Under the pieces are notes generated by a model, which saw only the letters and a list, made by a program, of their open reading frames with translations, was not told where the DNA came from and did not search any database. Source: a virus. Taken from it: 40,271 nt of DNA. Location: the IMG/VR virus record IMGVR_UViG_3300032050_000315, positions 1 through 40,271 of that record; one strand, written 5' to 3'. Below, in pieces: positions 4,682 through 40,271 of the stretch. A program made the position numbers and the translations under genes. Numbering within the stretch: the stretch's first letter is position 1; each line of letters begins with the position of its first letter.

Positions 4682-6505
4682 CTAATGTTTAATGATGTAG
4701 TTAAGTACGATGTACGGCTGAAGGTTGTTATGTGCTCCGCCACCACCAGTTGATGCTGAGTTAAACGCAGCAATGTCTACAGTGGTAGTATGAGTATGGT
4801 TAGCACTAACACCACCAGTAGCAGTTCCGTAACCTTGTGATGATTTAGAATTTGTAGCAAATCCATGATAATGGTCTATATTTGCGCTATTAATTCCAGG
4901 AGCCATAGACTGTGCGCCATTGGTAGCATTACTGTTTCTTGTGTAGTAAACTCTACCAGAACCAGAGATTGCGCCACCAGTCCATTCGTATAAAGTTCCA
5001 CCATGGCTATGATTTGCGTTAACGCCACCTGCCATTGTTGCGGTTTCGCCAGAATGGATGTGGTCATCACCGTGTGCATGGTTGGCAGATTCAATGCCAG
5101 AAGTAAAGTTTGTAGATGGTGGGTCAACTGAATGCAAGTGACTTGGCATTTCAGCACTTGTTAATGTGTGAGTTTTGGCACCACCAGTTTCGCCAAGTGT
5201 ATCAAACTCTGTTTCAGAAGCGTTCAAACCAACAGGAATTTTACCTTTTAAGTTTGGAAGATTGAACGTTGTTGAACCATCGCCAACACCATAAGTAGTT
5301 CCAATAACTCCATAAAGCGTTGCATAAGTTGTTCGGTCAACAGCACTACCATCACATAGGAAGTAACCAGATGGTGCAGTAGAACCAGCAAACATTGTTA
5401 TAACACCAGCAGTAATACCGTCACCAGTAGCACCCGTTGGTCCAGTTGCTCCCGTAGGTCCCGTTGCACCAGTCGGACCCGTTGGTCCAACTGCACCAGT
5501 AACACCTTGAATACCTTGAACCCCTTGAGGTCCAGTATCTCCAGTAGGTCCCGTTGGACCTGTGGGTCCAGTCGGTCCTGTAGGACCAATCGGACCAGTA
5601 GGTCCAGGAACGGTGGAATCAGCACCAGTAGGACCTGTAGGTCCTGCAATACCTACGGCACCAGAAAGATTAACTTCCCATGATGAGTAAGTTCCAGAAC
5701 CGTCAGAGTCAGTAATCTGAGCAACCATAACACCAGTACCAGAGTTATAAGTGTCAACCTCTGCGTGCATGTGATTTGAAATGTCATAAGAAACTAGAAC
5801 AGTTTGGTTGGTGGAGTAAGATAATCCAGTACCAATAGTTAAAGTTAAAGTTCCGCTTGAAGCAATAGTTAAAGTAGATGTAGATGTTGTTGCGTACTTA
5901 TCACCAGCAGTGCCAGTAGCACCCGTGGCACCAGTAGGACCAGTCGGTCCTATTGGACCTGTGTCACCTGTAGCACCAGTGCTACCAGTGGGACCAGTGA
6001 TACCTTGTATACCTTGCTCGCCTTGGATGCCTTGTACACCTTGAGGACCAGTAGGACCTGTAGGTCCTGCGGCTCCCGTTGGTCCAGTAGCACCAGTAGG
6101 ACCCGTAACACCAATACTTCCAGTAGGACCTGTAGGACCCGTATCACCAACTGGACCTTGTGGTCCTTCGGCTCCTGTAGGTCCTGTTACTCCTATTGGT
6201 CCAGTTACACCTTGGATACCCTGTGGTCCTGTCGGACCAGTAGGACCTAATGGTCCCGTTGGTCCTAGCGGACCTGTTGGTCCTGTTGGTCCAGTCGGTC
6301 CCTGTGGACCTGTTGGACCTAGTGGTCCTGTGGGTCCAATGTTTCCATTAATTCCCTGAGTTCCTTGTGGACCTTGTTGGTTGTCAACAAGAACTACAGT
6401 TTCTTGCAAAACTTCTTCACCAAGAATAACATCAGTAACAGTTTCTTCAATAGTAACTGTAGTTGATACAACTTCTTCTTCAATAATAACTGTGTAATCT
6501 GGCAT
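4682..6505 (-). CDS. Collagen-like tail fibre with phage tail-collar domain (607 aa)
   Basis: Residues 1-44 are an acidic, Val-rich N-terminal segment. Residues 45-202 and 286-362 are two collagen-like Gly-X-Y tracts dominated by GPTGPTG, separated by a globular beta domain (203-285). Residues ~365-430 match a phage tail-collar domain ([33 protein letters not shown]). The C-terminal ~165 residues are rich in His-x-His and NHxH motifs ([30 protein letters not shown]), reminiscent of the metal-binding HxH sites in T4 gp12-type adhesins, and end [11 protein letters not shown]. It is probably the receptor-binding short fibre. It overlaps the upstream gene's stop by one base. Confidence 0.9.
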
Positions 6506-9929: not shown

Positions 9930-11155
9930 TACGCTCCGCCTCTAAATGCTCTAACAAAAGATAGACCAAGGTCTGCTGCTTCTCTCTTTGCTGTGGTTGT
10001 GCTATTAAACTCACTCATCTGACGAACCATTTGGTTCACAGTTCCCATATCTGGAAGTGCATCTGAACCAATAATCTTTTGCATAATGCCATCAGTTAGT
10101 TTTATTGAGTTAGGAGTTTTATCTAGCATTCCTTCAATAAAGTTTGTGTATGGAGTAAGTGCTTCTTTAACTGTTAATCCTTTTAATAGGTCAGGAGTTT
10201 TGTCGTTGCGCAACTTATCCGATAGCGGCTTAAACAGATTGATTGCTTCTTCCTTGTAGGAACCAAGCACATCGTTTAAGTTTTCTCCCTTTATGACACG
10301 AAGAACATCACGATTAATTGTCTTGATATTTTTAACTAATCCCATGTCATTGGCATACTGTTCAATCTGACTTTGAATACCAAATGCATCACCCATAAGT
10401 TTTGCGTCTGGGTCTTTTTGCAAGTCTGACTTTAATGTTTCGTAAAGGAAGTCTTGCTTAAATTTATCTTCGGAGAATCCAGCACCCTTACCCTGCTGTG
10501 CTTGCTTTGTAGCAGCCCTCTGACCTGCAATTAACTTCTTGTAGAAGTTTTCCTTTTCCTGCTTTGTAGCAGAGCGACCAAAGGTAGTTGAGATTGCGGA
10601 CTCAATAAAGAAGTCAGCATCTGCACGAGAGGTGCCAATAAACTTTGGAGCCTGAGAGCGGTATCCACTTGCTCCTGCTCCAGTTCCTGCTGGAAGTTCA
10701 TTTGCTTGCTGCTGAAAACCAGCAATGACATTCCAAGGAGTTGTGTTTGCATTTGCAGCATCTTCAACAATTTGCTCCCAGAAAGAGTTTAATGTTTTCT
10801 TTCCGTAGGTAGCCTTGCCCCATGATTCATAAGCAGACTTGACAAATGAATATTCAGGTACTGAAGGACTCAGATAGTCCTTGGCATCACCAATCGTGCG
10901 GAAAGAAAGCGTCTGACCGTAGGAACCTTCATTCCAAAGAATGTCTGTTGGTTCTCTTCTGGAGCCGAACTCATTACCTTTAAATTTAATTCCGCTACCA
11001 GTCTTGGCTTTATTGCCGCCTTGATTTGGAACATAACTAAATCCACCAGGTGCTTTTGATTGCGTTGGAGTAGGAGTTGGCGTAGGTGTCGGAGTAAACT
11101 TAGGTTTAGGGTTACTCGTTTTACCTGGTCCTGCTGGACCTGACATTTCGCTCAT
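9929..11155 (-). CDS. Internal virion or structural protein with PT-repeat N-terminus (408 aa)
   Basis: Residues 1-60 are disordered: a Thr-Pro repeat (FTPTPTPTPTPTQ) and Gly/Lys-rich sequence. The remainder is helical, with conserved-looking aromatic stretches (FVKSAYESWGKATYGKKT, DADFFIESAISTTFGRSATK). FGRSATKQE is reminiscent of small domains in phage internal proteins. It lies between the giant protein and the 295-aa protein with one-base overlaps at both ends. Likely an inner-core or ejection protein; no catalytic motif seen. Confidence 0.55.
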   Translation of the reverse strand: MSEMSGPAGPGKTSNPKPKFTPTPTPTPTPTQSKAPGGFSYVPNQGGNKAKTGSGIKFKGNEFGSRREPTDILWNEGSYGQTLSFRTIGDAKDYLSPSVPEYSFVKSAYESWGKATYGKKTLNSFWEQIVEDAANANTTPWNVIAGFQQQANELPAGTGAGASGYRSQAPKFIGTSRADADFFIESAISTTFGRSATKQEKENFYKKLIAGQRAATKQAQQGKGAGFSEDKFKQDFLYETLKSDLQKDPDAKLMGDAFGIQSQIEQYANDMGLVKNIKTINRDVLRVIKGENLNDVLGSYKEEAINLFKPLSDKLRNDKTPDLLKGLTVKEALTPYTNFIEGMLDKTPNSIKLTDGIMQKIIGSDALPDMGTVNQMVRQMSEFNSTTTAKREAADLGLSFVRAFRGGA

Positions 11156-14100
11156 TATTTAATCCTCGCTAGTTCGCCATCTGAAAGTAGTGGGTCCCTC
11201 TTTAGGTAGTACTTTGCTATTGGTTCAAACGTTGGTTCCCACGCAATCAACTGATTAAGTAAATCTTCCTTCTGGGCAACAAGGTCATCAAAGGCATTAG
11301 TGTTGTAGATGTTTGTCTTTTCGTTATCTGATATACTCAGACGTTCTTCAACCATTGGCTTGCGGTACTCCATGTAGTAATACAAAGCCTCTAGTGCACG
11401 ATTGTTTTTAACAATAGTGTTGACATACTTCTCGTCACCCATGGCTTCAAGAATAATCTGAGTATTTAGGTTTGACTTACCCATATCAAAGATTGCGCTT
11501 TCCTTAGCCCAGATAGGATTACGCTTTGCCAATCCTTCTTCTGCAGCCTTTAGGTCATCGCCATAGATATTCTTAAACTCTTTTGAGCCAGGAATAATAC
11601 CGTTGCTTTCAGCCTCAGACTCATACTTATCCAGCAGGGTAAAGTATTCGTCATAACCCATATCAACAGCCATAGCACGTTGTTCAGCCTCACGGTTTAC
11701 ATTTCCACGCTTGACCTTTAGTTGATACAGTTTTGCATTTGCTGTTTCGGAGAAGTCTTTGTTCCTATCTCCGATGTTAAACAACATGCCAACAACTTTA
11801 TTGTCTGGTGTTACATCTTTACCCATTGACGCTTGAGTTAATCTAGCCCATAGGTTTTTATTGTTATTGATAGCCTTAACTGTTTGTGGAGTTGCTATCA
11901 CACCAAATGGATTAGTCTCACGTGTATTGCCTTCAGCAATAGATAGCGTGTAGGAACCGTATCTTTCAACAGAACCATCGGCTGCAATCTTAGTGTTATC
12001 AATCATAAAGCGGTACTTGCCCTCTTCATAACCGTACATATCCTGGTACTGACGAAGTTCTCTTGCCTTGATGTCCGCATACTTTTCTATCTTTACGGAA
12101 CCAACAGGACCAACAAACGAAAGGAATGCTTCCCACATGTTCTCTTGGATAGTAAGACCAATAGCCTGTTGTGTTAAATCAGCAATAGTTGAAATCTGGT
12201 CAAGATAGTTGATGTCAGAATCTACACCATCAACAACTTGCTTGTTGGCAAAGTCTTCGTATAGGAACTTAAAGTTCTTATTAACTCCAGCAGCGAAACG
12301 ATTTGCTGCTGATGGGTCCAAGAAACCAGTAACATTGTTCGCCAATGGAGTATCTTCAGACGCAGTTAATACAGAACGCATCCATGCGTTTGGATTAATC
12401 AAGAAGTTAAAGAACTTATCACGCTCAGATACTGGTGCTCCAGTCTTAACGTAACCAGCAAACAAGTCACGAACCTTATTTGGGTCTACACCAAACTTAA
12501 TTAGCAGTGGCTCTGGGTCTACTGGTGAACCAGATAGCGCAAGCAGTGTGCCACTTGCCGCAAAGTCATAAACTGGTGCACCAAACTCTGGCATGATTGG
12601 ATAGAAACCATTGTTAATTAGGTCGTATGTTCCAAGGGATGCTGACATTCTGTCACCCTCAGTCATTCCCATTTTGGAAGCAACTGTCTCAGGTAAAGTA
12701 AACTTTACTGCTGCACCCTTAGGGTCAAACGGATTAACAAACTCTACATCTTTTCCGTCTTCATTCTCTACGTCAAAGACACGAGATGGAGATGACCAGA
12801 TTAGGAAGTAGCGTGGAATTGCTTGTGGGTTTCTAGCGGCATAACCAAACCAGAATCGGTTTGAGTTCTGCTTAGCCATCCAGAATGGAGAGAACAAACG
12901 CAGCGTTTCTGCTGGGTCAGTCTTGCGCTGTACGGAATATAGACGTTCCATTACAGTCTTGTAGGCAGCACGATGTGCTGATTCACGCAACTTATCTGAG
13001 TTAGCATTAATCCAATCGTCACTGCGACCAGATTCTTTCCATAGTGTTGCTATTCTTCTGGACTCTGCTTGGTACATCATTCTGTAGATTGGGTTCTTTA
13101 CAGCCAAATCTTCTGGTTTTGTTCCAATGATTTCAAATAGTTTCTGTACACCACGTTGCCATAGGTTACCAGTTTCTTCTTCAAGGACGTTTCCAGTAAC
13201 ACTGACACGTTGACGCTCAGGAATAGCATTCATGTCTTCGGAAGTTAGTTTGCCTTCAACAGCCTTTGCACGTAAACCAGGTATTAATTGACCTGACTCT
13301 TCAGCAATAATTCCAGTTCCAGGAATAACTTCACCACGGCGAGTTAGGATGTAGTTACCTGCATCATCAACTAATGGAGCAATAACACGACCATCAATAC
13401 CAAAACGTGGCAATGTTCCTTCTAGGAACAAAGCATTGTTTTGTACCAAGTAACTAATTGGGTCGTTAATGTCATACTTGTTATCAAGATTGCTAATTGT
13501 AATAGCCATTAACTCACGCCATTTAACAGCCTCAGGGTCATTTGACTTAGCCCACGCTGTTACCTGTGCAATCGCTGCTGGGTCTGCAGTATCAAGGGTA
13601 GTTAACTTCTTGGCTACTGCATCACGCATTTGACGGTTAGCATAGTCTGCAGCAATAGGTGCCCATTCCGTATTTACAGTAGCAGCAGTCTGATTGCCTT
13701 CTCTTGGAACAACATTGAACGGAGATACTACGTCTTGACGCACACGTCCGTTAAGGATGTTGCCAATTATCACACGGTCTGCACCAAACACGGTAGCAAG
13801 TACGGTATTTGCGGAACTAATTTCCTTGCGCATCATATCGCCAACAATTCCAGCAAATGAATCGTCCATCATCAAGCCACTCTTAGTAACTTGGAACTCA
13901 CCTTCACCGTATCGCTCAAGACTGCGCAGAACATCTGTCTTGTTGATTAGGTTTTCAGCCTTGTTTCGTGCTGTTGCTTTTAAGATTGCAGCATTGGCGG
14001 TATTCTGAATGGAATAATCCATCTGTCCAAGCATCTTGTACATAAATCCAAGTTGAACCTGAGCACCATTAGGTACAGAGAAGAAGAACTCTTCTTTATC

Positions 14101-16869
14101 AAAGATTGCATTGATGGAATCTTGTTCTTTTCTAATTCTCTTTTGCAATTCTGCAAGAGTATCAAGCACAAAGCGTTCATCAGAAGAGGCTAAAATGTCA
14201 AACGCACCAGCATGGTCACCAGTTACAAACTTTGATAGCAGTTGCTGGTCAACTCCACCTGGAACATTCTGGGAATCTAAGATTCGGTAGCCAAATGTTT
14301 GAGAGAACTCTCGTATCTCATCCATCACTGGTACGGCTGGTCCACGACCTGCAGCATATGTGGTTGCTATATCATCTGCGGAGTTTAAAGCCTGAGTAAA
14401 GGTTGAAAATACTGAGTCGCTAGTACTAAACAAAGCATCAGCAATACGAGAGTTTGATGTTTCTTGTATTTCTTTAAACTCTTCACGGTACTTGTATAGT
14501 AAATACTTTGACTTCTGCGCTTCAAACTTCTTTTCTTTGTTGCCTGTGTAACGTTGCCATAGACCTGAATCAAAAGCAGAGGCTAAAATTTCTCGTGTTG
14601 GTACACCATAGTCACGTGAGTATTCAAGTGAGATAGCAAGACCACGTTGCCAGCCGTCACCTACGTTACGAGTTGCATACTTAAAACTTGCAAGCGTTGT
14701 TGGCTTCCAGTACTGGGTATAGAATGTATCTAAAGCGCTTAGGGATGTGTCCCAGGCTCGCAAACCCTTTTCTGGTACCGATGCAATTTTTTCGGTGTAT
14801 AGCATTTCTCTGGATTTATTGTCAGAGAATATAGCAACAATCTCTTTAGGGTCCATTTCCCTGTAGCGTGGGTTGTTTACAAGTTCATCAAACATAGCCT
14901 GTAACGATGACTTATTGTCACGAACAACTCTAGAGAACTGTCGGATGTCAATACCAAAGTGTACTGCTGGCACCTGAGGTGAGCGTGAAGGTGTCTTTGC
15001 AAAGATTGCTTTTACTTCAGCCTTAGCAGCCTCAATATCTTTTTGTGTAACCTTTGAACCTGGACCACGTTCCTGAGCAATCTGCAGCGCAACTGAATCC
15101 TGGAAGTTTGCAAGTTCCTTTAGGTATACCGCACTTCCAAAGCCATCGTCAATGGTGTAATTCTCATCAACAAGTTTTGTAATCATCGCATTGCGGTGAG
15201 ATGTTGACTTGCTTGCAACAATTTGTACAAGTTCGTTAAATGTCTTTACTTGTTCTGGAGTTGCATTTTGAGGAATTTTAATTTCTTTTTTGATTACGTC
15301 AACAATAACTTTTTCGTCAAGTTCGTCAAATGCTTGTAATTGTTGAGTCTTCTCACGAAGAGAGTAAAAGTTACCGTAAAGTCCACGTTGTTCGTCAGCA
15401 CTCTTACCAGCATACTTTCCATATTGACGTACACGAGCAGCGTACTCAAGATGTGAACGGTCACCAGCAATACCACCAAGGGTTGCATAGTATGCAGGAT
15501 ATTCCTGTAGTACTCCACTTGGACTTATCCAGTTTGTTGCATAAGCAAATGGACCAATGCGCTCAGTCTGCCAGTAGTTTGCATCATTCTTGATTGCGTT
15601 CTTGACTCTACCCTGTTCAATTCTTTTAATGCTTGATACAGTTTGTCTTCCAATGGAACCAACTGGTACTTCAGCAATTACCTCATCAAGTACTTCAAGG
15701 TTAGTGCGAACCGCTTTAACTTCTTCTTTTAGTCCATCTAACTTTGTTACTAAGACATTGCGGCGGTAGTTCTCAAGGGCATTTTTGCGCTGTGAACCAA
15801 TCAGAAATGGACTTGAACCACTTGTTATTGGCTTTCCCTTTAGGTCTGCAATTCTTTGTTTAATGCTTGAAACTTCACCAGTTAGATTGCTTAGTTCTTG
15901 AGCAGTTAAAGTTGTATCGTAAGCAAGTTCATCTATGGTCTTTGGGTCACCAATAGCAACCTTAAGTGTACGTGCTAGAGGCTGGTAGTCTCCAGTATCA
16001 TTGCCGTAACTTGCGGTCTTAGCAATTACATCAGCAAGTGGACGGTTGCCAGCAACCATTGAGTGTCTAGCAATTAGCGGTGAGTTACCAGCATTCTCTT
16101 TTGCAAAACCAACAAATGTTGACCAGTCATTATCAATGTGATTGATTACGGCATCGTCAATGTCTTTAGTTGTCTGAGACATTTTCTTTGAGTTAACTGG
16201 TTTTGTAACATACTTACGTACACCAAATCCAAGTCCAGCACCTGCTATTACACCAGGGTCAAGGTACCAGGCTAGTGCAGTATCACCAGACCAAGTAATC
16301 CAACGCTGGATTCCATGGTCAAAGTATTCAGCAACATCATTCTCATTTGACCAGACAATTTTGTCTGTTCCCTGAGTGCCATTTACATTGTCACCGATGT
16401 ATCCAACAAACGCTTGCATTGGCGATACACCACGTGAGTCTAGCCAAGCCTTACGAAACAGTTCTGGATTTGTTGCAGCCGAAAGCACGTCGTAAGCAAA
16501 GAATGGACCTTTAACATTTTTTGATTCACCAACTGCTTGCTGTTGGTATCCATCATTTGCAGCAAGCATAACCGTTGAAATTGGTCGTTGAACAAGTGTC
16601 TGCCAAGGAAGTAAGAGCGTGTTGTTTGCTTTAACTGCAGCATCATCAACAGCAAATTGTGCTTCATCAGAAATCTGTTGTGCAATTTCAGTAGTCTTCT
16701 GCCCTTGTGCTGCTGTCTTAGTACCAACATAACCAAAGGTTAGACCCTTTGTTAGACCAGAAGAAATGTCAGATAGACCGCCACTTACAGACTGTGCTAA
16801 ACCATCAATAAACTTTTGAACACGATTACGATTGTCACGCTGGTTATTGTAAATATCAAACATTGACAT
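11155..16869 (-). CDS. Giant internal virion/ejection protein (1904 aa)
   Basis: At 5.7 kb this is one seventh of the genome. The N-terminus has Gly/Ser-rich, amphipathic stretches (LAQSVSGGLSDISSGLTKG) and a region with membrane-like character (DPGVIAGAGLGFGVRKYV). The middle is long-helical with recurrent aromatic clusters (TQYWKPTTLASFKYATRNVG; FSPFWMAKQNSNRFWFGYAA), and the C-terminal third is again helical and charged. No lytic transglycosylase, peptidase or nuclease motif is evident. Size, helical content and placement between portal and scaffold match the large DNA-ejection proteins of podoviruses (such as T7 gp16 or N4 vRNAP-sized proteins in position only). Its start overlaps the stop of the 60-aa gene (TAATG); an in-frame ATG two codons later is equally possible. 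Confidence 0.65.
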   Translation of the reverse strand: MSMFDIYNNQRDNRNRVQKFIDGLAQSVSGGLSDISSGLTKGLTFGYVGTKTAAQGQKTTEIAQQISDEAQFAVDDAAVKANNTLLLPWQTLVQRPISTVMLAANDGYQQQAVGESKNVKGPFFAYDVLSAATNPELFRKAWLDSRGVSPMQAFVGYIGDNVNGTQGTDKIVWSNENDVAEYFDHGIQRWITWSGDTALAWYLDPGVIAGAGLGFGVRKYVTKPVNSKKMSQTTKDIDDAVINHIDNDWSTFVGFAKENAGNSPLIARHSMVAGNRPLADVIAKTASYGNDTGDYQPLARTLKVAIGDPKTIDELAYDTTLTAQELSNLTGEVSSIKQRIADLKGKPITSGSSPFLIGSQRKNALENYRRNVLVTKLDGLKEEVKAVRTNLEVLDEVIAEVPVGSIGRQTVSSIKRIEQGRVKNAIKNDANYWQTERIGPFAYATNWISPSGVLQEYPAYYATLGGIAGDRSHLEYAARVRQYGKYAGKSADEQRGLYGNFYSLREKTQQLQAFDELDEKVIVDVIKKEIKIPQNATPEQVKTFNELVQIVASKSTSHRNAMITKLVDENYTIDDGFGSAVYLKELANFQDSVALQIAQERGPGSKVTQKDIEAAKAEVKAIFAKTPSRSPQVPAVHFGIDIRQFSRVVRDNKSSLQAMFDELVNNPRYREMDPKEIVAIFSDNKSREMLYTEKIASVPEKGLRAWDTSLSALDTFYTQYWKPTTLASFKYATRNVGDGWQRGLAISLEYSRDYGVPTREILASAFDSGLWQRYTGNKEKKFEAQKSKYLLYKYREEFKEIQETSNSRIADALFSTSDSVFSTFTQALNSADDIATTYAAGRGPAVPVMDEIREFSQTFGYRILDSQNVPGGVDQQLLSKFVTGDHAGAFDILASSDERFVLDTLAELQKRIRKEQDSINAIFDKEEFFFSVPNGAQVQLGFMYKMLGQMDYSIQNTANAAILKATARNKAENLINKTDVLRSLERYGEGEFQVTKSGLMMDDSFAGIVGDMMRKEISSANTVLATVFGADRVIIGNILNGRVRQDVVSPFNVVPREGNQTAATVNTEWAPIAADYANRQMRDAVAKKLTTLDTADPAAIAQVTAWAKSNDPEAVKWRELMAITISNLDNKYDINDPISYLVQNNALFLEGTLPRFGIDGRVIAPLVDDAGNYILTRRGEVIPGTGIIAEESGQLIPGLRAKAVEGKLTSEDMNAIPERQRVSVTGNVLEEETGNLWQRGVQKLFEIIGTKPEDLAVKNPIYRMMYQAESRRIATLWKESGRSDDWINANSDKLRESAHRAAYKTVMERLYSVQRKTDPAETLRLFSPFWMAKQNSNRFWFGYAARNPQAIPRYFLIWSSPSRVFDVENEDGKDVEFVNPFDPKGAAVKFTLPETVASKMGMTEGDRMSASLGTYDLINNGFYPIMPEFGAPVYDFAASGTLLALSGSPVDPEPLLIKFGVDPNKVRDLFAGYVKTGAPVSERDKFFNFLINPNAWMRSVLTASEDTPLANNVTGFLDPSAANRFAAGVNKNFKFLYEDFANKQVVDGVDSDINYLDQISTIADLTQQAIGLTIQENMWEAFLSFVGPVGSVKIEKYADIKARELRQYQDMYGYEEGKYRFMIDNTKIAADGSVERYGSYTLSIAEGNTRETNPFGVIATPQTVKAINNNKNLWARLTQASMGKDVTPDNKVVGMLFNIGDRNKDFSETANAKLYQLKVKRGNVNREAEQRAMAVDMGYDEYFTLLDKYESEAESNGIIPGSKEFKNIYGDDLKAAEEGLAKRNPIWAKESAIFDMGKSNLNTQIILEAMGDEKYVNTIVKNNRALEALYYYMEYRKPMVEERLSISDNEKTNIYNTNAFDDLVAQKEDLLNQLIAWEPTFEPIAKYYLKRDPLLSDGELARIK

Positions 16870-26649: not shown

Positions 26650-26770
26650 GACTATGCATTGTGATTGGGTGTGGCAAGATGACCGTGACGGTTACCGTTA
26701 CTGGGAATGCACTGAACATGGAGAGATAGAGTCAGAAGAACTGGAGGAAAAAACTTATGGAGACGATTAA
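26642..26770 (+). CDS. Small Cys/His protein (42 aa)
   Basis: ATG 26642, TAA 26768-26770. MHCDWVWQDDRDGYRYWECTEHGE places two Cys and two His in a 20-residue span; the C-terminus is acidic (ESEELEEKTYGDD). It overlaps whiB by 14 bases and its 3' end contains whiB's ribosome site (TGGAGGAAAAAACTT). Confidence 0.55.
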   Translation: MSETMHCDWVWQDDRDGYRYWECTEHGEIESEELEEKTYGDD

Positions 26771-27041
26771 GTATCCGAACTATGACGGCACACAGAATTG
26801 CGCACGTATGGGTGTGGATGTGTTCTATCAGGACTATGACAACAAGAGGACAGCACAGGAAGTAGCAGACTTGAAAGAGTTTTGCTCTAATTGCAACATC
26901 CTTGTTGAGTGTGCAGAATACGCAATCAAGCATGAGAAGTATGGTTTCTGGGGTGGCACTACACCATACGAGAGACGTGTCATACGCAATAAACGCAAGA
27001 TAAGATTGGACTTACCAGAAAATGATTGGACTAAGAAGTAA
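26757..27041 (+). CDS. whiB: WhiB-family transcriptional regulator (94 aa)
   Basis: Four cysteines at residues 15, 43, 46 and 52 (C-x27-C-x2-C-x5-C) would hold a [4Fe-4S] cluster, followed by GFWGG (63-67) and a basic tail (RRVIRNKRKIR), the complete WhiB signature. Host WhiB proteins bind the housekeeping sigma factor and tune promoters; phage WhiBs are known to interfere with the host regulators. It is expressed in the early operon and so could redirect host transcription or control the early-late switch. The family is the main evidence for an actinobacterial host. Confidence 0.92.
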   Translation: METIKYPNYDGTQNCARMGVDVFYQDYDNKRTAQEVADLKEFCSNCNILVECAEYAIKHEKYGFWGGTTPYERRVIRNKRKIRLDLPENDWTKK

Positions 27042-34849: not shown

Positions 34850-35254
34850 TTATGCGGAAAGGATAGCCTTAGGGTCTAGACCACCGCCACGCTTCCAGCC
34901 TGGACCTGCCTGTAGTTCCATGTGAAGATGAGGACCTGTGACATTGCCGTCCTTCCCAACCTTTCCGATGAAATCTCCAGCCTTAAGCCTTTGTCCGACC
35001 TTGACCTTGTATGAAGACAGGTGAGCAAAGAGAAGATGACCACCTTCAACTTGCATCAAGACTGAGTGCTGTCCAAAAGCAGCACCCCACACTTGACCAA
35101 CCCTTGCAACCTTGCCATCGCATGGAGCAACAACGATTGCACCTACTGGTGCTGCGTAATCTACTCCTTCATGGCGACCAGAGGACCATAAACGCCCCTT
35201 GACTCCGAACGGTGTCGTGACCTTATACTTTGGGTCTTGCATTGGTGAAGCCAT
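34850..35254 (-). CDS. M23 peptidase endolysin (134 aa)
   Basis: Zinc ligands and catalytic residues of LytM-type M23 peptidases are all present: His28 and Asp32 in RHEGVDYAAP, His78 in LLFAHLS, and His109/His111 in GPHLHMEL. No signal peptide and no separate cell-wall-binding domain, so it is a minimal glycyl- or D,D-type endopeptidase needing a holin for export. It is the last gene of the leftward block, one base after the 60-aa membrane protein, forming a lysis cassette. Exact cleaved bond not predictable. Confidence 0.88.
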   Translation of the reverse strand: MASPMQDPKYKVTTPFGVKGRLWSSGRHEGVDYAAPVGAIVVAPCDGKVARVGQVWGAAFGQHSVLMQVEGGHLLFAHLSSYKVKVGQRLKAGDFIGKVGKDGNVTGPHLHMELQAGPGWKRGGGLDPKAILSA

Positions 35255-35436: not shown

Positions 35437-36543
35437 TTACTTAAGTCTCCTGACTTGGGCTAACTGTCCAACAATAATTGCTGCGACTACGACACCTTGA
35501 GATTCTTCTCTCTCTTTAGGTGTCATATCACTACCGATAGCCATGATTGCTTCCGCAGCCTTTGCCAACTGTACGACACCAGGAACGTTTTGTAGGTAGG
35601 TTGGTACTTCTATATCAACTTGGGCTAAAAACTCGTCTACGGGGCTTACAGGGGCAGGAACAGCCATTGTAGGCTGTGGTTCTGGGGTTATTTCTGGGAC
35701 TAATTCAAGGGTAGGGGTTACCGTTGGGGTGGGGGAAGGTTCAGGCTCAACCGTAGGGCTAGGGGTTGGCACTGGTGGTACTGGTACGACACTTTCCTGG
35801 GAAGGGGATGGTGTAGGCTCAGCGACAGGGGTAACGTCTGGCGTTACTACAGGTTCTGGGATTGGTGATTCACTTTGAGTAGGTTCAGGTATTGGCGTTG
35901 GCTCTGGGTCCAAACTGGGTACAACACTTGGGACTGGTTCAGGAACCACAGGTGGTTCAGTAAATGATGGTGGCACTGGAGCAGGTGGTACCTCTACAGG
36001 TACACCACCGTTAACATCAAACGCTGCTTCCATAGGTACAACAGGTTGACCCTGTTCAAACCTAATGCCACGTCTTACGTTATCGGGTAGCCACCCAAAG
36101 GTAACTATCTCTCCATGCCAACCACCATCAGATGCACGATTGATTACTAATCGTATCTGAGTTAGTTCACCTGTTGACTGAGGAAAAGGGCGTACGCTCC
36201 ATTCGGCACAGAAAGTATTCTCTGTTGAACCAAACGAAAGGTACGCACCTTCACCAAAACTTACCCAGTCATAACCTGCGACAGATACCGATGGTGTCTG
36301 AGGATAATCCCAGTACGTACCATCAGGTCTGCCAAAGGTTAGTGTTGCATTAGTTGACACATACACATTGCTGTATTCCGTACTACCCAACGAGAGGCTG
36401 AAAGGTAGGTTGGCTGCGAATGCAGAGTCATCATCACCACGGTATGTGTACGTATTACAGTTGACACTAGCCTCTACAGGCGTAGCAACCATAAACGAAC
36501 CTACAATAAAAGAAACAATCCCTAAGCGGAGTTTCCTTTTCAA
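35437..36543 (-). CDS. Secreted/surface protein: signal peptide, nidogen-like domain, Pro-rich stalk (368 aa)
   Basis: Residues 1-25 form a Sec signal peptide (MKRKLRLGIVSFIVGSF...PVEA, likely cut after Ala25). Residues ~26-175 form a beta domain with NVYVSTNATLTFG and two Cys, similar to nidogen-like extracellular domains. Residues ~180-305 are a Pro/Val/Glu/Thr-rich stalk (PEPTPIPEPTQSES). The C-terminus has a helix and a short non-polar segment (GVVVAAIIVGQLAQVRRLK). A signal peptide is unusual for a gene inside a virion/lysis block; it suggests a protein exported to the host surface, for example to affect adsorption, superinfection or lysis. Confidence 0.65.
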   Translation of the reverse strand: MKRKLRLGIVSFIVGSFMVATPVEASVNCNTYTYRGDDDSAFAANLPFSLSLGSTEYSNVYVSTNATLTFGRPDGTYWDYPQTPSVSVAGYDWVSFGEGAYLSFGSTENTFCAEWSVRPFPQSTGELTQIRLVINRASDGGWHGEIVTFGWLPDNVRRGIRFEQGQPVVPMEAAFDVNGGVPVEVPPAPVPPSFTEPPVVPEPVPSVVPSLDPEPTPIPEPTQSESPIPEPVVTPDVTPVAEPTPSPSQESVVPVPPVPTPSPTVEPEPSPTPTVTPTLELVPEITPEPQPTMAVPAPVSPVDEFLAQVDIEVPTYLQNVPGVVQLAKAAEAIMAIGSDMTPKEREESQGVVVAAIIVGQLAQVRRLK

Positions 36544-36546
36544 TTA

Positions 36547-36795
36547 CTACTTAGACTTCTTCTCGTTTGCTTTAGCGAAAGAATCGTTGATTTCTTTGTC
36601 ATCTAGTTTGCCATCACCAAGGTAGCCACGGGCTAGAGATTCAGATACAACTGCAACACCCATGATTGCTGCTAAGGCGGCAGACTTCCAGGTGTCAATA
36701 CCTAGTAGTGCACCAGCACCAAGGGTACCCATTACAGATGCGATAACTACAGCCAACATGCGACCAGAGATATCTTTAACTTGCTTCTTACTCAC
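36547..36795 (-). CDS. Two-TM membrane protein, holin candidate (82 aa)
   Basis: Two hydrophobic helices (about 13-32, MLAVVIASVMGTLGAGALLG; and 37-54, SAALAAIMGVAVVSESLA) are followed by a charged C-terminus with DGKLDDKEINDSF. This arrangement resembles small membrane proteins in actinophage lysis regions. With the 60-aa protein at 35254 it could form a holin/antiholin pair. Stop and start separation from neighbours is minimal. Confidence 0.65.
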   Translation of the reverse strand: MSKKQVKDISGRMLAVVIASVMGTLGAGALLGIDTWKSAALAAIMGVAVVSESLARGYLGDGKLDDKEINDSFAKANEKKSK

Positions 36796-38789: not shown

Positions 38790-40246
38790 TACTTAGCCTC
38801 TAGTTCTGCTACCTTAGCCTCAAGAGCGATAAGACGTTGTTCAAGGTCATTAGAACGAGTCTTTTCACGCTTAATAATATCAAGCAAGTAGACAGCCAAC
38901 TTGTCGTAGTTAACGCCCTCAGCAGTTGGTGTATCTAAAGTCGTAAACTGCTGTTGTCCATTTTCATCAAATACAAGATTGCCATGCTCATCTAAGGTTG
39001 GTTCAACAGTGTTAAAGAAAACCAAACGTGGTTGAACTTCTGCAACTTCTTCAGCAATAAGACCAACATGTGACCATTGTTCTGCGTCATCAACACTTGA
39101 TTCCTTTGACCTAAACCAAACGGGACGAAGATTAAGAACTGAATCTGCAGTGGCAGGGTCTAAATCTTCAATGTCTTTTTTGTATCTTACGGAAGATGTG
39201 GCTAGACGAAGTTGATAATCTGAACTAACAACAACATTTGCTGTTGCGCTAACAGTATTAAGTCTGACTGCGGGCCAGTAGGCAGTTGTACTTGTTACCG
39301 TAAAAGCACCAGCACCACTAGCATTTAACGCAGCAAGTTGAGAACTAGCGGCATTATTAGTAAATTGAATAATTGCATCAGAACCATTACCTGATGGTTG
39401 TTTAACAAGTAATCCACGTCCAGCACCAGCATTTGTGGTTGCACCAATAATTCCAGGTGAATCAATATCTCCACTTATAAGTGGTGAAGATATTGATGGA
39501 GTAGTTAATGTCTTATTTGTTAATGTCTGTGAACCAGTTAAAGTCACAGTGGTAGAAGTAGGAGCCTTAGAGTCTAACTGTGTTTGAATGGCAGAAGTAA
39601 CACCATCTACATAGTTAAGTTCAGCAGTAGATGTAGTAACACCATCAAGGATATTTAACTCAGCAGCACTTGCAGTTACACCATCAAGAATGTTAAGTTC
39701 TGTAGCAGTAGCAGTGACAGCAACATCTTCATTAATCTTTGGACTTGTTAAAGTTTTATTGGTTAGTGTTTCCGTACCAGCCTGAGTAGCAAAATTTCCA
39801 TCAGACAGTGCAGTATTAAACTGTGCAGTTGTGCCAGTTAAAGTGTTGTTAGTTAGGTTAACTGTTTTGTTAGTTAGAGTTTGTGTGTCTGATGTACCAA
39901 CAACTGAACCAGTTACACCATGAACTGCAGAAGTGGCAGCAATATGGTCCTGTGGTTCCTGTAAGTCACGAGCAGTAATCATGTGCTTAACAACGGCACC
40001 TGAATCGTGTGCTTGTGCCGAGGTGCCATCTTGACCACGGGTAATTGCTAAAGTTGTACCACCACCACTTGACGCAGTAACTGTTACAATTTCTTCCGTT
40101 GCAGTATCTGGGTCAATTACTAGCGTATAAGGAAAAGAGTTAGGAAGTGTACTTGCAGTGTTAACTGTCATGCTTCCAATGCTATTATTAATTGATGCGC
40201 TAAGTGTCTTAGCCTCAACAGTTGAACGATATTGACGGGCTGCCAT
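38789..40246 (-). CDS. Tail fibre/spike with S74 intramolecular chaperone (485 aa)
   Basis: Residues 1-100 are an attachment domain with ITRGQDGT. Residues ~120-255 form a trimeric stalk with repeats: TLTNKT(L/V) four times and TELNILDGV / AELNILDGV / AELNYVDGV. The C-terminal ~130 residues are the S74 chaperone, with SSVRYKKDI giving Ser351 and Lys356 as the catalytic Ser-Lys pair, followed by HVGLIAEEV and a coiled coil (LEQRLIALEAKVAELEAK). After trimer folding, the chaperone cleaves itself off before Ser351. The first 149 codons are repeated at the left window edge, an assembly overlap. Confidence 0.88.
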   Translation of the reverse strand: MAARQYRSTVEAKTLSASINNSIGSMTVNTASTLPNSFPYTLVIDPDTATEEIVTVTASSGGGTTLAITRGQDGTSAQAHDSGAVVKHMITARDLQEPQDHIAATSAVHGVTGSVVGTSDTQTLTNKTVNLTNNTLTGTTAQFNTALSDGNFATQAGTETLTNKTLTSPKINEDVAVTATATELNILDGVTASAAELNILDGVTTSTAELNYVDGVTSAIQTQLDSKAPTSTTVTLTGSQTLTNKTLTTPSISSPLISGDIDSPGIIGATTNAGAGRGLLVKQPSGNGSDAIIQFTNNAASSQLAALNASGAGAFTVTSTTAYWPAVRLNTVSATANVVVSSDYQLRLATSSVRYKKDIEDLDPATADSVLNLRPVWFRSKESSVDDAEQWSHVGLIAEEVAEVQPRLVFFNTVEPTLDEHGNLVFDENGQQQFTTLDTPTAEGVNYDKLAVYLLDIIKREKTRSNDLEQRLIALEAKVAELEAK

Positions 40247-40271
40247 AATTTACCTATCGGGTGAAGTGGAT
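39799..40271. repeat. Right copy of the 473-bp terminal redundancy
   Basis: Matches 1-473 except T at 40148 and A at 40247. The fibre gene start (ATG 40246-40244) lies inside, and the last 25 bases correspond to the end of the 299-aa gene at 456-473. It marks the point where the circular genome was opened. Confidence 0.95.

What the first reader, a model, noticed from the sequence alone, without database searches (positions are those of the whole stretch)
35437..36543. Secreted stalk protein inside the lysis cassette
A cleavable signal peptide, a nidogen-like beta domain, ~125 residues of Pro/Glu/Thr-rich stalk and a weakly hydrophobic C-terminus together look like a surface-displayed bacterial adhesin rather than a virion part. 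It is flanked by membrane proteins and an endolysin. Possible jobs: receptor masking, superinfection exclusion, or outer-envelope disruption.
Basis: partly seen in the sequence, partly recalled or inferred. Interest (0 to 1): 0.62.

Follow-up and report, generated by a model that had tools for sequence, protein, structure and literature searches.

The report
Phage-encoded surface display module, swappable head
This phage gene encodes a protein that appears to be sent out through the infected cell's membrane and held on a long stalk, always paired with one tiny membrane protein; related uncultured water phages keep the same stalk base but exchange the outer binding head, which suggests a widespread, undescribed way for phages to redecorate the surface of the bacteria they infect.

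Summary
At 35437-36543(-) lies a 368-residue ORF with a Sec-type signal peptide, one all-beta domain (AlphaFold2 pLDDT 90), a 114-residue disordered Pro-rich stalk and a C-terminal helix ending in RR-K. 'Nidogen-like' is not confirmed: no Pfam or PDB match. 'Inside the lysis cassette' is right here (holin-like, stalk, p60, M23) but is not the essential link. The essential link is the next gene, a 60-residue membrane protein (p60). In four viral-contig scans every locus where both could be seen carried the stalk's C-terminal motif (G[AS]DM[ST]xExRE...VVxAxxVxxQ...RR) directly upstream of p60, while holin and endolysin change order or are absent. The chassis is constant and the outer head is exchanged: this beta domain, a small two-Cys domain, PA14, SUEL-lectin-like, PPC-like, or heads on Ala-rich coiled coils. 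Two phages 99% identical downstream differ only in the head. The pair has no hit in 50,697 GenBank phages and one in GTDB contigs (a phage-like contig). Best reading: a surface-display module, most likely for superinfection exclusion or receptor masking. The architecture is well supported; the function is inferred (about 0.4). The host is actinobacterial (WhiB; kin of isolated Planktophila phages, which lack the module).

The parts
35437..36543 (-). Stalk display protein, 368 aa, TTG start
36469..36543 (-). Signal peptide, residues 1-25 (MKRKLRLGIVSFIVGSFMVATPVEA)
   Evidence: helix 2-19 in the full-length model
35995..36468 (-). Exchangeable all-beta ectodomain, residues 26-183
   Evidence: model pLDDT 90.3; dN/dS 0.05-0.13; replaced whole in near-identical phages
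35644..35985 (-). Pro/Val/Thr/Glu/Ser-rich stalk, residues 187-300, predicted disordered
35440..35577 (-). Conserved C-terminal element, residues 323-368 (GSDMTPKEREESQGVVVAAIIVGQLAQVRRLK core), candidate membrane anchor or p60-binding helix
35254..35436 (-). p60: obligate partner, 60-aa small membrane protein (weak first and strong second hydrophobic segment around a conserved LDGSAK turn)
36547..36795 (-). 82-aa holin-like membrane protein directly upstream (neighbour, not obligatory)
   Evidence: phrog_26427 7e-23 and holin phrog_443 1.4e-4
34850..35254 (-). M23 endopeptidase, putative endolysin (neighbour, not obligatory)
   Evidence: PF01551 3.7e-23

Best explanation
A two-gene phage surface-display module. 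Shown: a conserved chassis (signal peptide, stalk, C-terminal motif) is always followed by p60, and only the outer head is exchanged between related phages. Inferred: late in infection the protein is exported by Sec. Its C-terminal helix stays in or at the cytoplasmic membrane with p60, the Pro-rich stalk crosses the peptidoglycan, and the head is displayed outside. There the head most likely binds the cell's own envelope glycans and blocks adsorption of other phages, and keeps progeny off infected cells and wall debris (superinfection exclusion or receptor masking).
For: Pairing: all loci where both parts could be seen have motif and p60 adjacent: 48/48, 77/77, 74/74 (one with a 221-nt gap) and 78/78 in four scans, which overlap in contigs. 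C-terminus and p60 distances correlate best (rho 0.66, against 0.30-0.40 for C-terminus or p60 with M23 or holin). Head exchange: L005 and L039 are 99.2% identical over 1.78 kb downstream and 91.5% upstream, with unrelated heads; further cases L015/L036, window/L031, L126/L127. Heads resemble surface-binding domains: of 65 non-redundant members PA14 in 16, SUEL lectin in 4, fn3 in 2. Signal peptides throughout. The head is under strong purifying selection, so it works as a fixed tool exchanged whole. Precedents: phage-encoded variable secreted surface proteins in Cryophage, for which its authors suggest superinfection exclusion (PMC7468147), and T5 Llp (PMC9586334).
Against: Membrane anchoring is marginal: the window's hydrophobic C-terminal run is about 14 residues (KD19 1.19) and modelled at low confidence. 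Head type does not track the tail proteins gp664 or S74 (p 0.17 and 0.59), so a match between head and the phage's own receptor is not shown. Superinfection exclusion is usually an early function, whereas this gene sits in a late cluster. No ligand is known. Isolated relatives E7 and F5 lack the module.
Confidence: 0.4

Rival explanations
1. A lysis-module protein: exported stalk plus p60 act in envelope rupture or its timing (spanin-like, antiholin-like, or helping wall and debris to separate).
For: 59 of 75 non-redundant loci have an M23 gene and/or the holin-like gene within a few genes. A marine relative lies between a holin-like gene, a PG-binding protein and an SLT transglycosylase. p60 looks like a small holin.
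Against: In a large-phage clade (L115, L116, L118, L119, L125, L126, L128, L130) the pair sits away from lysis genes. E7 and F5 lyse their host without it (PMC10202952). Exchangeable lectin-like heads are not needed for lysis.
Confidence: 0.22
2. An adhesin of the infected cell: the head sticks infected cells or wall fragments to other cells, particles or mucilage, or alters grazing, helping progeny meet new hosts.
For: PA14, SUEL-lectin, PPC-like and fn3 heads are typical of adhesins. Phage SM1 surface components are a precedent for phage-encoded adhesion (PMC2920869). Secreted subtilase-like genes lie near the module in large phages.
Against: A free-living plankton host gives no obvious partner; no ligand known.
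Confidence: 0.2
3. A virion component (fibre or decoration) whose signal-like N-terminus is not cleaved.
For: It follows tail genes in the window and has domains known from phage fibres.
Against: Signal peptides with AxA-type sites across the family; the constant parts are the signal peptide and C-terminus with an obligate membrane partner; beside lysis genes in most loci.
Confidence: 0.08

Closest known systems
Cryophage variable T9SS cargo proteins (PMC7468147)
   Same: Phage-encoded secreted or surface proteins, variable between near-identical phages, one with a PA14 domain; superinfection exclusion proposed.
   Different: They use the host's Bacteroidetes type IX system and its C-terminal sorting domain. 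Here the host is actinobacterial, the C-terminal motif is different and a dedicated phage partner, p60, is always present.
Phage T5 Llp superinfection-exclusion lipoprotein (PMC9586334)
   Same: A small exported phage protein proposed to stop adsorption to infected cells and debris.
   Different: Llp is a periplasmic lipoprotein of a Gram-negative host that jams FhuA. This protein is stalked, has no lipobox, and exchanges its head.
SM1 phage surface components in Streptococcus mitis (PMC2920869)
   Same: Phage-encoded proteins that end up on the host surface and bind partners.
   Different: As I recall, PblA and PblB are tail-derived; this family is Sec-exported and has its own membrane partner.
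Nidogen NIDO domain (PF06119)
   Same: The N-V-Y-V-S-T-N-G-T-L-T-F-G stretch looks similar by eye.
   Different: No Pfam hit in 22 members and no PDB fold match.

Membership tests
NIDO domain (nidogen-like) | Match to the NIDO profile or fold | tested here: not met
   0 of 22 members at E up to 1; no PDB sequence or fold hit
Stalk-p60 display module | C-terminal motif followed directly by p60 | tested here: met
Stalk-p60 display module | Export signal at the N-terminus | tested here: met
   (by sequence only)
Stalk-p60 display module | C-terminal membrane anchoring | tested here: inconclusive
   hydrophobicity marginal, low-confidence helix
Superinfection-exclusion proteins | Blocks adsorption or infection by related phages | not testable with these tools
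   needs expression and adsorption assays
Superinfection-exclusion proteins | Head type matched to the phage's own receptor-binding genes (supporting, not strictly defining) | tested here: inconclusive
   no correlation with gp664 or S74 in 14-17 phages, but the receptor-binding gene itself is not identified
Holins / lysis proteins | Always in the lysis cassette | tested here: not met
   large-phage clade
LPXTG or lipoprotein surface anchors | LPXTG motif or lipobox | tested here: not met
   neither present in the sequence

The most novel reading that the evidence does not exclude
A dedicated phage surface-display system in which p60 anchors or sorts any protein carrying the C-terminal motif, letting phages of aquatic actinobacteria exchange lectin-like heads on a fixed chassis to reprogram the infected cell's surface.
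Probability: 0.4. Interest if true: 0.78.

Novelty: new variant of a known kind. Interest (0 to 1): 0.62.

Why it matters
If it displays exchangeable binding heads, it is a general phage tool for controlling the infected cell's surface in some of the most abundant freshwater bacteria, and it makes superinfection exclusion in monoderm plankton directly testable.

Tried and rejected
Nidogen identity: tested and not met. Cellular origin: two GTDB scans found no relative and one phage-like contig in a Flavobacteriaceae MAG (pattern-based, limited sensitivity). Co-variation of head type with tail genes: none. Search for the module in isolated Planktophila phages E7 and F5: no p60 or stalk hit in either; E7, read gene by gene, carries a 68-aa protein, a 167-aa protein that I read as an M15-like endolysin (no Pfam hit) and a 61-aa holin-like protein in that slot. 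A Streptomyces relative (FlowerPower) has only small genes in that slot. 'Strict lysis gene' rejected because of the large-phage clade. The genome search could not sample host relatives for a virus record. Literature searches for a description of this pair found none; the library is open-access only.

Full report
What is there. The ORF at 35437-36543(-) encodes 368 residues from a TTG start. It lies in a tight minus-strand run: S74-containing fibre, gp664, 82-aa holin-like protein, stalk protein, p60, M23 endopeptidase. Residues 1-25 are a Sec-type signal peptide without lipobox; 26-183 form an all-beta domain; 187-300 are a Pro-rich acidic stalk; 323-368 hold two predicted helices ending in RRLK. 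dN/dS of 0.05-0.40 over head, stalk and C-terminus shows a real gene.

The beta domain. AlphaFold2 with 22 family sequences gives pLDDT 90.3 and pTM 0.86. Foldseek finds no PDB match and only four viral matches at E <= 0.001, all from phages and without an experimental function, the best A0A6J5P6J9 (TM 0.82 by query). Pfam finds no NIDO in any of the 22. 'Nidogen-like' should be dropped; 'phage beta domain of unknown kind' is what the data show.

The partner. In 52 stalk-derived loci, p60 follows the stalk gene wherever the contig extends that far, while holin and M23 take at least three different orders. A second scan with divergent p60s and one with the C-terminal motif gave the same answer: 48/48, 77/77, 74/74 (one with a 221-nt gap) and 78/78 assessable loci are paired, the exceptions being contig ends. 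The four sets overlap in contigs and hold the best-scoring loci only. Across 45 loci with all four genes, C-terminus and p60 distances correlate at 0.66, against 0.21-0.40 for the other pairs.

The exchangeable head. L005 and L039 share 99.2% identity from the stalk base through p60, M23 and beyond, and 91.5% identity in the signal-peptide region, but have unrelated heads. Similar exchanges occur between L015 and L036, window and L031, L126 and L127. Among 65 non-redundant members Pfam finds PA14 in 16, SUEL lectin in 4 and fn3 in 2; by eye others carry PPC-like heads or Ala/Glu-rich coiled coils. Within one head type selection is strongly purifying, so heads are replaced whole rather than tinkered with. 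Head type does not follow tail, holin or endolysin identity.

Context and host. The window has a terminal repeat, as in a circular assembly, encodes WhiB (8.3e-12), and shares terminase, portal, capsid and several other proteins with the isolated Planktophila phages E7 and F5 (PMC10202952). Those two give no stalk or p60 hit, and in E7 other genes fill the slot. The pair gives no hit in 50,697 phage records and a single hit in 84,980 GTDB genomes, a phage-like contig in a MAG. Of 75 non-redundant loci, 59 have M23 and/or the holin-like gene nearby; eight large-phage loci have the pair beside nrdF, capsid or other genes instead.

Mechanism. Shown: conserved chassis, obligate p60, whole-head exchange, export signals. 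Inferred: Sec export, retention at the membrane by the C-terminal helix with p60, and display of the head through the wall. A 114-residue Pro-rich stalk at roughly 0.3 nm per residue would reach about 34 nm, enough to cross a monoderm wall (my estimate). The most likely job is to mask receptors and block adsorption. Precedents are the variable secreted proteins of Cryophage (PMC7468147) and T5 Llp (PMC9586334). Lysis function, adhesion and virion roles remain open at lower odds.

Limits.

Noticed in passing
window 1 to about 473 and 39799-40271: Direct terminal repeat (identical over the 300 bases shown; offset 39798): the window looks like a complete circular or terminally redundant assembly, and the S74 fibre gene runs into the repeat.
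   Followed up: partly
window 26757-27041: WhiB-like gene (PF02467, 8.3e-12), marking an actinobacterial host.
   Followed up: yes
window 36547-36795: Two-segment membrane protein whose best PHROG (7e-23) is labelled 'nuclease'; the label looks wrong, since it also matches a holin family.
   Followed up: no
window 11155-16869: 1904-residue protein of unknown function (phrog_10618) among the structural genes.
   Followed up: no
window 4682-6505: Collagen-repeat fibre with a tail-collar domain.
   Followed up: no
L128:5054-5839; similar-looking secreted proteins near the module in L118 and L130: Secreted subtilase-like gene close to the display module in large phages.
   Followed up: partly
L044:5421-5813; L017 and L026 next to the module: A 130-aa protein family beside the module in 31 loci; similarly placed proteins in L017 and L026 carry a signal peptide.
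   Followed up: no
L105, L107-L110, L112, L124, L126-L128, L130, L136: The signal-peptide reading frame has no ATG, GTG or TTG at the expected start, so an unusual start codon (such as ATT) may be used.
   Followed up: partly
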